Part shown: one piece after another, positions 1,994 to 34,667 of the stretch
Position numbering within the stretch: the stretch's first letter is position 1
Layout of the letters: every line of letters starts with the position of its first letter
From: Candidatus Woesearchaeota archaeon
GTDB taxonomy: Archaea > Nanobdellota > Nanobdellia > Woesearchaeales > JACPBO01
Length of the DNA stretch: 39,263 nucleotides
NCBI GenBank assembly: GCA_016180285.1
Contig: JACPBO010000004.1
Coordinates: forward strand, 1-39,263
Direction: 5' to 3'
Notes under the pieces: generated by a model
What the model was told of the DNA's origin: nothing
What the model saw: only the letters and a program-made list of their open reading frames with translations
Database searches by the model: none
Translations under genes and position numbers: made by a program

Positions 1994-4207
1994 ATGACTG
2001 AACTGATCATAACTGAAAAGCCGGCAGCAGCATTGAAGATAGCTGAAGCTCTTGCCGACGGTAAAGCGATAAAGGAATCTAACCAGGGAGTGCCTTATTA
2101 CAAAGTAACCCATGGCAAAAATGACATCATTGTGGCATGCGCAGTAGGCCACCTCTATGGATTGGCTGAAAAAGAGAAGGGAAAATGGACTTATCCAGTC
2201 TTCGATATCGAATGGAAGCCGACTAATGAAACAAATAAAGGAGCGGCATTCTCAAAAAAATACCTGCAGACAATTAAAAAGCTTTCAAAAGAGGCAAAAA
2301 CATTCACAGTTGCAACTGATTATGATGTTGAAGGCGAGGTCATCGGGCTTAATGTTGTCCGCTTCATCTGCAATCAAAAAGATGCTGCAAGAATGAAATT
2401 CTCCACATTAACAAAGCCTGATTTAATTGAAGCATATGAGACTAAATCAAAAACATTAAACTGGGGCCAGGCAATGGCCGGCGAAACAAGGCACGAATTG
2501 GATTGGTATTGGGGCATCAACACAAGCAGGGCATTGACAGCTGCAATAAAAGCAGGCGGAATGTTCAAGATAATGAGCTCAGGCAGAGTGCAGGGCCCTG
2601 CATTGAAAATAATTGTTGACCGTGAAAAAGAAATAAGAAATTTCAAGCCTGTTCCGTTCTGGCAGATCGAGCTCAAAGGCAATGTGAACAAAGGCGAAAT
2701 AACAGCGTGGCACAAGGAAGACAAGTTCTGGGAAAAGGAAAAGGCAGAAGCTGTAATGCATAAAGTTAAAGCCGAGAAAAAAGGGCTTGTGCAGGAAGTC
2801 AAAAAAACACAGTTCAACCAGAAAGCTCCTGTTCCGTTTGACCTGACAGCGCTGCAGATAGAGGCTTACCGCGTCTTCAGGATACAGCCTAAAGAAACAC
2901 TGGAGATCGCCCAAAACCTATACCTTGCCGGATTGATATCTTATCCGAGAACATCAAGCCAGCAGCTTCCTTTTGTTTTGGATTTCAAAAAGATTTTAAA
3001 AAATTTAAGCTCGAATGAAAGCTATAAAAAATTAACTCAGCTTTTGCTTGCAAAAGAAAAATTAATCCCAAACAATGGGAAAAAAACCGATCCTGCTCAT
3101 CCCGCTGTCCATCCTACAGGAGAATACCCTAAAAAGATTGATGCAAGGGAATATAAAATATATGACTTGATTGTAAAAAGGTTTTTTGCAACATTCGGCG
3201 AAGATGCAGTAAGAGAAACTGTGGCAGTTGACATAAATGTTAAAAATGAGATTTTCATTGCAAAAGGAACAAGGACAATAGCAAAAGGGTGGCATATTTT
3301 ATACGAGCCTTACGTTACGTTAAAAGAAGAAGAGCTTCCTCCGATAAACAAGAGCGATATTGTAAACATAGATAAAATAACAATGTATGACAAAGAAACA
3401 CAGCCGCCTGGCCGCTTCACTCCAGCTTCAATCATAAAAGAACTCGAAAGAAAAAATTTAGGCACGAAAGCTACCAGAGCGCAGATCATTGACACATTGT
3501 CGCAAAGGGGATATATAACAGGAAAAGTAATTGAAGCTACTGATCTGGGAATTAAAACAGTTGAAACTTTGGAAAAGTACTCGCCATTGATCCTTGATGA
3601 AGAGCTGACAAGGCATTTTGAAGAAGAGATGGAAGAAATACGCGATCAGAAGAAAAAGCCAAAGGAAATTCTTGAAGAGGCAAAAGCTGCTTTAATAAAA
3701 ATCCTGAATGAATTCAAGGGGAAGGAAAAAAAGATTGGCGAAGACTTAAAAGACACATATCAGGAGCAATTAAGGCAGGAGAGTGAAATAGGAAAATGCC
3801 CTGTATGCGAAAAAGGGACATTAAAAATGAGAAAAGGCCGCTTTGGAAGGTTCATTGCATGCGACCAATATCCGGAATGCAAGACAACATTCAAGCTTCC
3901 TTCTTCAGGCCTGATCAAGCCATCTGAAAAAATATGCGAGCAATGCAAATATCCAATGATAATGGTTATCAGAAAAGGAAAAAGGCCGCAGGAAGTGTGC
4001 ATCAATAAGGAATGCCCCTCAAAGCAGATAATGGATGCAGCTTTGAAAAAAGAAGCTGAAAAGATTGAATCAGGCAAAATAGAAAAGAAATGCCCTAAAT
4101 GCGGAATAGGCAACCTTGTTCTGAGAAAAAGCGTATATGGTGTTTTTTATGGTTGCTCGCAATATCCGAAGTGCAGATATATAGAGAAAATAGGAACTAA
4201 ATCATAA
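1994..4207 (+). CDS. topA: DNA topoisomerase I (type IA)
   Basis: This 737-residue protein relaxes negatively supercoiled DNA by transient single-strand cleavage. The Toprim domain shows the catalytic Glu near residue 8 (ITEKP) and the acidic motif DYDVEG at 109-114. The active-site tyrosine is Tyr317 in LISYPRTSS. The C-terminus holds three four-cysteine zinc ribbons: CPVC...CDQYPEC, CEQC...CINKEC and CPKC...CSQYPKC, with the KGRFGRFIAC pattern usual for TopA rather than topoisomerase III. Length is normal for archaeal TopA. The ATG at 1994 is 6 bases after the stop of the winged-helix/nucleotidyltransferase gene, suggesting one operon. Confidence 0.95.
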   Translation: MTELIITEKPAAALKIAEALADGKAIKESNQGVPYYKVTHGKNDIIVACAVGHLYGLAEKEKGKWTYPVFDIEWKPTNETNKGAAFSKKYLQTIKKLSKEAKTFTVATDYDVEGEVIGLNVVRFICNQKDAARMKFSTLTKPDLIEAYETKSKTLNWGQAMAGETRHELDWYWGINTSRALTAAIKAGGMFKIMSSGRVQGPALKIIVDREKEIRNFKPVPFWQIELKGNVNKGEITAWHKEDKFWEKEKAEAVMHKVKAEKKGLVQEVKKTQFNQKAPVPFDLTALQIEAYRVFRIQPKETLEIAQNLYLAGLISYPRTSSQQLPFVLDFKKILKNLSSNESYKKLTQLLLAKEKLIPNNGKKTDPAHPAVHPTGEYPKKIDAREYKIYDLIVKRFFATFGEDAVRETVAVDINVKNEIFIAKGTRTIAKGWHILYEPYVTLKEEELPPINKSDIVNIDKITMYDKETQPPGRFTPASIIKELERKNLGTKATRAQIIDTLSQRGYITGKVIEATDLGIKTVETLEKYSPLILDEELTRHFEEEMEEIRDQKKKPKEILEEAKAALIKILNEFKGKEKKIGEDLKDTYQEQLRQESEIGKCPVCEKGTLKMRKGRFGRFIACDQYPECKTTFKLPSSGLIKPSEKICEQCKYPMIMVIRKGKRPQEVCINKECPSKQIMDAALKKEAEKIESGKIEKKCPKCGIGNLVLRKSVYGVFYGCSQYPKCRYIEKIGTKS

Positions 4208-33964: not shown

Positions 33965-34065
33965 CGGTGCGGCTGGGATTTGCACCTTTTTAGGTTTTGA
34001 ACCCAGATTCCCTGTCAGGAAGATACCTTTCAAGTATCCTCCATACCAAATTAGGCGACCGCACC
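33965..34065 (-). tRNA. Class II tRNA-like, anticodon GAA (Phe), 17-nt T-loop insertion
   Basis: Read on the minus strand, GGTGCGG (34059-34065) pairs perfectly with CCGCACC (33966-33972). The anticodon arm GATAC/GTATC encloses the 7-nt loop TTGAAAG, giving GAA at 34029-34031. A variable arm TTCC/GGAA follows, as in Ser and Leu tRNAs but not in Phe tRNAs. The T-stem CTGGG/CCCAG (34002-34006 / 33973-33977) is perfect, but its loop is 24 nt instead of 7: the usual TTC...AAAT is split by 17 nt containing an ACCT/AGGT mini-hairpin. The D-arm is weak. G73 follows and CCA is not encoded. A TTATAAAG box lies about 10-20 bases upstream. Could be an intron-containing functional tRNA or a decayed mobile one. 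Confidence 0.6.
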
Positions 34066-34087
34066 TTTACACTTTATAACTAATTAA

Positions 34088-34143
34088 ACTCGAATCTATC
34101 CGTGAGTCAGACAGATGCTCTTTCCAAACTAAGCTACACGCCC
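34088..34143 (-). pseudogene. tRNA-like sequence, anticodon GAC (Val), 3' part missing
   Basis: On the minus strand it starts GGGCGTG, then TAGCTTAGTTTGGAAAGAGC (a normal D-arm), an anticodon arm TCTGT/ACGGA with loop CTGACTC (GAC at 34106-34108), and a TTCGAGT T-loop. The T-stem and 3' acceptor strand (CACGCCC expected) are absent; instead the promoter of the next tRNA-like gene begins. The 5' end overlaps the last codons of the AbrB-like gene at 34129-34341. It is a truncated tRNA or a half gene. Confidence 0.5.
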
Positions 34144-34341
34144 TTTACACTTCTCTTTTTGATCTAAATATGCTAAAATAACTGGTCGGTTATCTCCGTC
34201 TTTAGCCAAATAACAGTACAATGCCTGGCCTTTTTCCAAGCCACATCCAATCGCGACTAACTTGTTGATAGAAATACTCAAAGTAGATCTTTTTTGAGTT
34301 ATCTTGCTTTTCCAGCCTATGTTTTGGAAAGTTATTTTCAT
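34129..34341 (-). CDS. Small AbrB-like protein whose 3' end overlaps a tRNA-like sequence
   Basis: From the ATG at 34341 the 70 residues read MKITFQNIGWKSKITQKRSTLSISINKLVAIGCGLEKGQALYCYLAKDG..., a two-strand pattern (STLSISINKLVAIGCGLEKGQALYCYL) like the AbrB/MazE swapped hairpin. The frame's first codon 34347 is TTG and is less likely. The final residues (KGRVA) and stop are encoded by the 5' end of the Val-like tRNA sequence. It may therefore have a C-terminus altered by insertion. It is flanked by tRNA-like sequences on both sides on the same strand. A role as DNA-binding antitoxin or regulator is only suggested. Confidence 0.5.
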   Translation of the reverse strand: MKITFQNIGWKSKITQKRSTLSISINKLVAIGCGLEKGQALYCYLAKDGDNRPVILAYLDQKEKCKGRVA

Positions 34342-34359
34342 TTTCAATTATATTTACGG

Positions 34360-34478
34360 CGCCGAGGGAGGGATTTTCAGCAACCCCTACAGTTAGCATT
34401 TGAACCCTCATAGCGTTGTGGGTTAACGCTAACTGGATCATAAGTCCAGCGTCTTAAGTCAGACTCGACCACCTCGGC
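34360..34478 (-). tRNA. Class II tRNA-like, anticodon TAT (Ile), 25-nt T-loop insertion
   Basis: On the minus strand: acceptor GCCGAGG/CCTCGGC (34472-34478 / 34361-34367), D-stem GTC/GAC, anticodon arm CTGGA/TCCAG with loop CTTATGA, so TAT at 34440-34442, a 7-bp variable arm TAGCGTT/AACGCTA (34425-34431 / 34411-34417), and T-stem GAGGG/CCCTC (34405-34409 / 34368-34372). Every stem is perfect. The T-loop region is 32 nt (34373-34404): TTCAAAT is interrupted by 25 nt that fold as GC(T)AAC/GTTGC. The discriminator is G73, CCA not encoded. The long variable arm is that of Ser or Leu tRNAs, yet TAT reads AUA. TATATAAAA lies at about 34491-34499. Confidence 0.7.
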
Positions 34479-34501
34479 TTTACCGATAATTTTATATATT
34501 A

Positions 34502-34578
34502 GTTGAACAATACTTTCTTTGTGGGTTAACGCTAATTGTTTCAAGTCTAGTGTCTTGGCCATTCTCGGCCACTTTACT
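34502..34578 (-). pseudogene. Degenerate class II tRNA-like sequence related to the TAT one
   Basis: On the minus strand TGGCCGAG...GGCCAAGAC gives a D-arm, then CTAGACTTGAAA resembles a Ser(TGA) anticodon half whose 3' strand no longer pairs. The following AGCGTTAACCCACAA is shared with the TAT tRNA: 17 bases are identical (34519-34535 versus 34416-34432 on the plus strand). A GTTCAAC T-loop remnant follows and then the promoter of the TAT tRNA. Acceptor strands are missing or unmatched. It is most simply a decayed duplicate. A TATA-like ATATAAAAAA lies upstream near 34583-34594. Confidence 0.5.
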
Positions 34579-34600
34579 TTTCGTTTTTTATATGTCATGC

Positions 34601-34667
34601 GGTAATTTAGTAATTACCATAGTTGGTAACCAATATAGAGAACAATAAATATATAAATCTTTCGGTT
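34601..34667 (+). promoter_or_regulatory. Two palindromes and TATA box of the winged-helix gene
   Basis: GGTAATT/AATTACC (34601-34607 / 34612-34618) and the perfect palindrome TTGGTAACCAA (34623-34633) lie ahead of TATATAAATCTTTCGGTT (34650-34667). The latter repeats the promoter at 6897-6914. Two GGTAA-containing sites just upstream of a regulator gene suggest autoregulation, activating or repressing. Confidence 0.5.

What the first reader, a model, noticed from the sequence alone, without database searches (positions are those of the whole stretch)
33965..34478. Two class II tRNAs with Phe (GAA) and Ile (TAT) anticodons
Both have perfect acceptor, anticodon and T stems and a long variable arm, the hallmark of Ser/Leu tRNAs, but their 7-nt anticodon loops read GAA and TAT. 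Both have G73, a Ser identity element in archaea. If charged with Ser (or Leu), they would insert the wrong residue at UUC and AUA codons. A known parallel is the nematode V-arm tRNA-Ile(UAU) charged with Leu. I know of no archaeal case. Alternatively they are decoys or decayed mobile tRNAs. For the GAA gene a 9-nt loop reading TGA (Ser) cannot be fully excluded.
Basis: partly seen in the sequence, partly recalled or inferred. Interest (0 to 1): 0.85.

Follow-up and report, generated by a model that had tools for sequence, protein, structure and literature searches.

The report
Miscoding tRNAs paired with antisense RNAs
Tiny archaea of one order carry many serine-type transfer RNAs whose anticodons read codons for water-avoiding amino acids, most of them next to a small RNA that matches and probably silences that same tRNA, which looks like a new, RNA-only way to poison or reset protein synthesis on demand.

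Summary
Both genes are class II, G73 tRNAs with anticodons GAA and TAT. They belong to a multi-copy family in the window's order (Woesearchaeota-like archaea).

Of 106 intron-bearing members tested, 84 have just upstream a degraded same-sense copy of the tRNA's own D-arm, anticodon and/or variable-arm region. Its opposite strand reads as a short antisense RNA: TATA box, about 25 nt, a guide complementary to that tRNA, a hairpin, a T tract. Mismatches between copy and tRNA keep G-U pairing 242:39, so the antisense strand is the functional one. All 84 anticodons have A35 and so read NUN (Phe/Leu/Ile/Val) codons; 82 have G73, the serine discriminator.

Best reading: stress-regulated Ser-tRNAs that would put serine at hydrophobic codons, each held in check by its own antisense RNA, like a toxin-antitoxin pair. 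Charging, expression and toxicity are inferred. The window's TAT cassette is complete apart from a D-loop G19A change. The GAA gene is an orphan that replaced the 3' half of a tRNA-Val(GAC) gene intact in the sister genome.

The parts
34360..34478 (-). class II tRNA, anticodon UAU (TAT), G73; pre-tRNA with T-loop intron
   Evidence: fold and homologues; D-loop G19 is A here, G in G001
34433..34449 (-). anticodon arm CTGGA-CTTATGA-TCCAG
   Evidence: sequence; stem kept in 15 homologues
34411..34431 (-). variable arm TAGCG-TTAACCCACAA-CGCTA
   Evidence: covariation in the arm across homologues
34374..34398 (-). 25-nt T-loop intron, BHB layout (TTCA/TGAA helix, 3-nt bulges)
   Evidence: sequence; same position in the family, splice helix at least 3 of 4 pairs in 78 of 78 parsed
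34519..34589 (+). predicted antisense RNA: guide complementary to the TAT tRNA D/anticodon/variable arms (34519-34556), hairpin GGCC..GGCC (34557-34570), T-rich tract (34572-34589)
   Evidence: z = 15.9 against shuffled flank; coordinates; family-wide G-U-keeping substitutions
34488..34500 (+). TATA box of the antisense RNA (palindromic, could also serve the tRNA)
   Evidence: 23-25 nt from guide start; family-wide peak at 24-29 nt
34584..34594 (-). TATA-like box CATATAAAAAA, candidate sense promoter of the tRNA
   Evidence: position matches the family's upstream TATA; weaker evidence
34601..34633 (-). palindromic sites TTGGTTACCAA / TGGTAATTACTAAATTACC, operator-like, at the place where relatives have ACTGGACA repeats
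   Evidence: sequence only
33965..34065 (-). class II tRNA, anticodon GAA, G73, T-loop intron; orphan copy without antisense element
   Evidence: homologues in other genera; no upstream copy, z = 1.5; absent from G001
33979..33995 (-). 17-nt T-loop intron of the GAA gene; splice helix TTCA/TGCA has one mismatch
   Evidence: sequence
34087..34143 (-). 5' part of tRNA-Val(GAC); 3' part lost where the GAA gene sits
   Evidence: intact tRNA-Val(GAC) with T-loop intron at the same place in G001

Best explanation
The TAT gene is one member of a family of RNA-only cassettes: a class II, G73 tRNA reading a NUN (hydrophobic) codon, plus a divergently transcribed antisense RNA complementary to that tRNA. 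Shown by sequence: the tRNA fold with arm covariation, the spliceable T-loop intron, the A35 anticodons, the paired antisense element with promoter spacing and terminator-like end, and selection for pairing to the tRNA. Inferred: the tRNA is spliced and charged with serine, and when its promoter fires faster than the antisense RNA can neutralise it, serine enters Leu/Ile/Phe/Val positions and slows or poisons the cell (a toxin-antitoxin-like, stress-triggered mistranslation switch). The GAA gene in this window is a decayed or silenced orphan of the same family.
For: Upstream copy with z > 4 in 84 of 106 intron-bearing members, median 9.7, against a maximum of 2.5 in 46 ordinary tRNAs. Substitutions keep antisense-tRNA pairing 242:39, 67 cassettes to 3 and 39 genomes to 2. 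TATA-like hexamers 24-29 nt from the guide start in 131 of 174. Own duplex -51 against -24 kcal/mol for other cassettes. A35 in 84 of 84 and G73 in 82 of 84 (one anticodon re-read by hand), G1-C72 in 82 and G30-C40 in 66. Serine identity rests on G73 and the variable arm, not on the anticodon (PMC9976931); tRNA-Ser with foreign anticodons mistranslates and is toxic in yeast (PMC6827378). AUA is still read as Ile, so a Ser-charged TAT tRNA would miscode. ACTGGACA repeats before the tRNA promoter are shared with recombinase, nuclease and methyladenine glycosylase genes.
Against: No transcript, charging or growth data. 22 of 106 members have no detectable upstream copy. Six members have C33 in place of U33. 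Type A bodies are about equally near Leu and Ser tRNAs. Nematode V-arm tRNAs with foreign anticodons cause no detectable mistranslation (PMC4300185). The window's own copy lacks G19.
Confidence: 0.5

Rival explanations
1. Regulated, useful mistranslation: the tRNAs are Ser-charged but switched on under stress to diversify or destabilise the proteome, with the antisense RNAs as dimmers rather than antitoxins.
For: Same anatomy as the best explanation; promoter motif shared with repair-like and recombination genes; several cassettes with different anticodons in one genome.
Against: The uniform choice of hydrophobic codons is the most damaging substitution class; each cassette keeps its own matched antisense RNA, as addiction pairs do.
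Confidence: 0.22
2. Decoys or non-coding tRNA-like RNAs: they are never used on ribosomes but titrate an enzyme or another RNA, and the antisense RNA tunes their level.
For: Six members have C33; nematode V-arm tRNAs mature but do not detectably mistranslate (PMC4300185).
Against: A35 is invariant while stems and the flanking anticodon bases vary, which points to codon reading; G73, G1-C72 and the splice motif are kept.
Confidence: 0.13
3. Selfish RNA cassettes or decayed mobile tRNAs without a present function.
For: Many genomic sites, no recurring neighbour gene; the GAA copy in G000 sits in a broken tRNA-Val gene and is absent from G001; one related copy lies in a giant ORF.
Against: Arms and antisense pairing are under selection across 45 genomes; TAT differs at 1 base of 119 between two species.
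Confidence: 0.1
4. The TAT gene is simply the genome's AUA-reading tRNA, charged with Ile (or Leu).
For: AUA is the commonest Ile codon here (345 of 698), TiaS is absent, and I could not find another AUA reader.
Against: TiaS is missing in 287 of 288 genomes of the order, yet only 10 of 84 antisense-linked tRNAs have TAT, so another AUA reader must exist in general; close homologues carry TAA or CAG; the pattern cannot see tRNAs with introns before the anticodon.
Confidence: 0.05

Closest known systems
Nematode nev-tRNAs (V-arm tRNA-Ile(UAU) and tRNA-Gly(CCC); PMC4300185)
   Same: class II body with a non-Ser/Leu anticodon, including UAU; conserved; would break the code if used
   Different: nev-tRNAs are leucylated in vitro and have no reported antisense partner; here G73, archaeal T-loop introns, A35 throughout and a matched antisense RNA
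Toxin-antitoxin pairs with RNA antitoxins, e.g. tisB/istR-1 (PMC8145889, PMC4147584); RNA-toxin pairs such as CreTA (named from memory)
   Same: inducible harmful product with its own antisense RNA transcribed close by; several copies per genome
   Different: the putative toxin is a tRNA, not a peptide mRNA or a tRNA-trapping RNA; archaeal; toxicity untested
Engineered mistranslating tRNA-Ser variants (PMC6827378)
   Same: serine body with a foreign anticodon, charged regardless of anticodon and toxic
   Different: laboratory constructs; here a natural multi-copy family under antisense control
Archaeal tRNAs with non-canonical BHB introns
   Same: intron in the T loop at about 59/60 with a bulge-helix-bulge
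   Different: none in the intron itself; ordinary tRNAs of this genome share it

Membership tests
tRNA-Ser | long variable arm (class II) | tested here: met
   arm covariation; both window genes
tRNA-Ser | discriminator G73 with G1-C72 | tested here: met
   82 of 84 each
tRNA-Ser | serine anticodon (NGA or GCU) | tested here: not met
   A35 in all 84; so not filed as an ordinary tRNA-Ser
tRNA-Ser | charged by SerRS | not testable with these tools
   inferred from identity elements only (PMC9976931)
tRNA-Leu | discriminator A73 | tested here: not met
   ordinary Leu tRNAs of the order have A73 (L152, L155); the family has G73
toxin-antitoxin with RNA antitoxin (type I / VIII) | antisense RNA complementary to its own partner | tested here: met
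   (predicted, not observed as RNA)
toxin-antitoxin with RNA antitoxin (type I / VIII) | partner is toxic when expressed and the RNA neutralises it | not testable with these tools
   no expression data
nematode nev-tRNA | leucine charging | not testable with these tools
   G73 argues against LeuRS (PMC9976931); type A bodies about equally near Leu and Ser
archaeal BHB intron | 4-bp helix with 3-nt bulges at the splice sites | tested here: met
   at least 3 of 4 pairs in 78 of 78 parsed members

The most novel reading that the evidence does not exclude
A new class of RNA-only toxin-antitoxin: natural Ser-charged tRNAs reading hydrophobic (NUN) codons serve as inducible mistranslation toxins in Woesearchaeota-like archaea, each neutralised by its own divergently transcribed antisense RNA and, in many genomes, controlled by a damage-like regulon.
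Probability: 0.4. Interest if true: 0.97.

Novelty: categorically new. Interest (0 to 1): 0.9.

Why it matters
If right, the active part of a toxin is a tRNA: serine is put in place of hydrophobic residues across the proteome, gated by a base-paired antisense RNA. That would be a new principle for toxin-antitoxin systems, a natural case of programmed miscoding, and a rare regulatory RNA system in the uncultured DPANN archaea. It makes a standing question testable: why some organisms keep tRNAs that break the code. For annotation, it warns that class II tRNAs with Leu/Ile/Phe/Val anticodons in this order may not be ordinary isoacceptors and should not enter codon-usage or code-reassignment inferences unchecked.

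Tried and rejected
(1) Chance folds: rejected by homologues and arm covariation. (2) Variable arm as an intron of a class I tRNA: it is a continuous covarying stem without bulges. (3) Serine anticodon TGA in a 9-nt loop for GAA: homologues keep A35 in a 5-bp/7-nt arm. (4) AUA reassigned: Pfam scores fall with AUA = Leu or Ser (topoisomerase 391.8 / 380.2 / 353.9; T2SSE ATPase 116.3 / 106.2 / 84.8); the AdoHcyase NAD domain is neutral between Ile and Leu. (5) A short ORF across the upstream element in G000: start codon lost and frame shifted in G001. (6) Upstream element as a functional sense copy: substitutions favour the antisense strand. (7) A conserved partner protein: no neighbour family recurs in more than 4 of 82 loci. 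(8) Viral carriage: one IMG/VR pattern gave six hits, none with a tRNA. (9) Wider spread: the type B model finds only own-order genomes at E <= 1e-18 among 236 of the phylum; weaker relatives elsewhere are not excluded. (10) A census of the ordinary tRNAs of G000 stayed incomplete because many have several introns.

Full report
OBSERVATION. The window is contig C4 of a 1.33-Mb assembly (G000) whose closest named relatives are Woesearchaeota/Nanoarchaeota MAGs. ARAGORN reports none; Rfam RF00005 gives 31.6 bits for the GAA gene and 21.3 for part of the TAT gene. The score is low because both T loops contain an insertion. In both it is laid out as an archaeal bulge-helix-bulge intron between positions 59 and 60, e.g. 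GGG-TTCA-AAT...TGAA-AAT-CCC for TAT; removing it leaves TTCAAAT. T-loop introns occur in several ordinary tRNAs of this genome (Asp, Cys, Ala, Ser), so the feature is local custom. Mature forms: acceptor 7/7, anticodon stem 5/5, 7-nt loops TTGAAAG (GAA) and CTTATGA (TAT), long variable arm, G73. Flaws: TAT has G19 changed to A in the D loop (83 of 84 family members keep a GG there); GAA has a G10-A25 mismatch and one mismatch in its splice helix.

SISTER GENOME. In G001 (same genus) the TAT gene differs at one base of 119 (the D-loop base, where G001 has GG) and is bracketed by two small repeat-like insertions. The GAA gene is absent there; its place is taken by an intact tRNA-Val(GAC) with a T-loop intron, whose 5' part survives in G000. 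So TAT is conserved, and GAA is a newcomer that cost G000 the 3' half of that Val gene.

A FAMILY. BLAST of the spliced TAT sequence against 288 genomes of the order found homologues (83-90% identity for the best full-length ones in other genera). BLAST of the GAA gene found a second group with a different body. I aligned each group and built covariance models R1 (type A) and R2 (type B). In type A all six variable-arm pairs change on both sides at least once, and 97.7% of cells are paired against 86.2% in shuffles and 37-47% when slid. Searching the order with both models gave many intron-bearing hits (97-167 nt), often several per genome (eight parsed in G082). Model E-values of the seed sequences are high by construction; the independent evidence is the BLAST homology. 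I parsed 109 sequences, of which 106 are intron-bearing with enough flank to test.

ANTICODONS. Among the 84 members with an antisense element (below) the anticodons are GAA 19, CAG 14, GAT 12, TAT 10, TAA 7, CAA 7, AAG 5, GAG 3, TAG 2, GAC 2, AAC 2 and one parsed as TGA. The last (L210) re-reads by hand as AGGGG TTGAGAT CCTCT, i.e. GAG, with five pairs. All therefore have A35 and read NUN codons for Phe, Leu, Ile or Val; none reads Met. G73 is present in 82 of 84, G1-C72 in 82 and G30-C40 in 66. G73 and G30-C40 are the serine elements named for bacterial and archaeal SerRS, G73 repels LeuRS in Haloferax, and the anticodon does not matter for serine identity (PMC9976931). With the anticodon arm left out, 66 of 78 bodies are closer to ordinary Ser than to ordinary Leu tRNAs of the order, with type A ambiguous.

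THE ANTISENSE RNA. Just upstream of the tRNA lies a degraded same-sense copy of its D arm, anticodon arm and/or variable arm. Local alignment against shuffled flanks gives z > 4 in 84 of 106 members, median 9.7; 46 ordinary tRNAs of G000 and G001 never exceed 2.5. Four facts say that the opposite strand is the product. (a) Where copy and tRNA differ by a transition, 242 changes keep pairing between antisense strand and tRNA through G-U (G to A 160, T to C 82) and 39 do not (A to G 14, C to T 25); 67 cassettes lean one way and 3 the other, 39 genomes versus 2. AT-biased mutation would raise G to A and C to T alike. (b) TATA-like hexamers sit 24-29 nt from the copy end (131 of 174), the archaeal TATA-to-start distance, while their distance to the tRNA is spread over about 9-23 nt. 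(c) Beyond the copy the sense strand is A-rich (76 of 84), i.e. a T tract after a hairpin on the antisense strand. (d) The antisense RNA pairs with its own tRNA at a median of -51 kcal/mol against -24 for other cassettes, better in 84 of 84; its own tRNA is the single best match in 65 of 84. In the window: TATA 34488-34500, guide from 34519, hairpin 34557-34570, T-rich tract 34572-34589. The GAA gene has no such element (z = 1.5).

THE tRNA PROMOTER. About 60-70 nt before the copy many cassettes have ACTGGACA repeats (56 copies, 0.14 expected), followed by a TATA box. In eight genomes ACTGGACACTGGACA occurs 47 times against 0 for the reversed pattern. Elsewhere it precedes protein genes: a tyrosine recombinase (Phage_integrase), HNH endonuclease, Bro-N, RNase_H_2, DUF763 and methyladenine glycosylase. 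I read this as a damage- or mobile-element-like regulon; that is inference. One cassette (L209) has this promoter directly before its tRNA with no copy between, which supports it as the tRNA's promoter. The window's cassette has different palindromic sites there (34601-34633).

GENETIC CODE. Pfam scores of window proteins are best overall with AUA = Ile. AUA is the commonest Ile codon (345 of 698) and NUN codons are 32% of all codons counted. TiaS is absent in G000/G001 and in 287 of 288 genomes of the order, so an AUA reader that does not need TiaS must exist throughout. I could not identify it.

MECHANISM (inferred from here on). Stress fires the sense promoter; the pre-tRNA is spliced by the BHB endonuclease, charged by SerRS and inserts Ser at Leu/Ile/Phe/Val codons. 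At rest the antisense RNA pairs with the anticodon or variable arm and blocks folding, splicing or use. This is the logic of LexA-controlled tisB with the RNA antitoxin istR-1 (PMC8145889, PMC4147584), with a tRNA as the toxin. tRNA-Ser with a foreign anticodon mistranslates and is toxic in yeast (PMC6827378). Against it: no expression data, about one fifth of members lack a detectable antisense copy, and nematode nev-tRNAs show that such tRNAs can be harmless (PMC4300185). Literature searches found no description of this system, within an open-access library only.

VERDICT. Observation confirmed; interpretation partly right. The finding opens onto a family that I would file as unlike any known system, with high confidence in the anatomy (about 0.9) and moderate confidence in the toxin-antitoxin reading (about 0.5 for the whole statement).

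Noticed in passing
L086 (G000:C41:12282-12391, minus strand) and L087 (G001:C6:25221-25330, plus strand): A third class II G73 tRNA shape with anticodon GAA and a T-loop intron lies inside a giant surface-protein-like ORF without breaking it; degraded copies of it upstream form in-frame peptide repeats (one in G000, two in G001).
   Followed up: partly
L234, L236, L237, L239, L240, L245, L248, L251: ACTGGACACTGGACA followed by a TATA box precedes recombinase, nuclease, Bro-N, DUF763 and methyladenine glycosylase genes: a possible archaeal damage regulon.
   Followed up: partly
L172, L180, L186: Members without an upstream copy often have the A-rich tract (a T tract on the other strand), in L172 with a hairpin, directly before the tRNA, as if an antisense RNA started inside the tRNA gene itself and ended there.
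   Followed up: no
L054 (G001:C6:16500-20500), both sides of the TAT tRNA: Two insertions of about 150 nt with hairpin ends (ATGTCA...TGACAT) flank the TAT gene in G001 and are absent in G000: small non-autonomous mobile elements.
   Followed up: no
L128, L168, L174, L190: Cassettes with different anticodons (TAA, GAA, GAA, GAC) lie close to homologous neighbour genes in different genera, which hints at anticodon or cassette exchange at one chromosomal site.
   Followed up: no
L034 / L088 (G000:C1, about 3200-3400) and L085 in G001: A tRNA-like gene with very long or multiple introns that I could not assign; many ordinary tRNAs of this genome have two or more introns.
   Followed up: no
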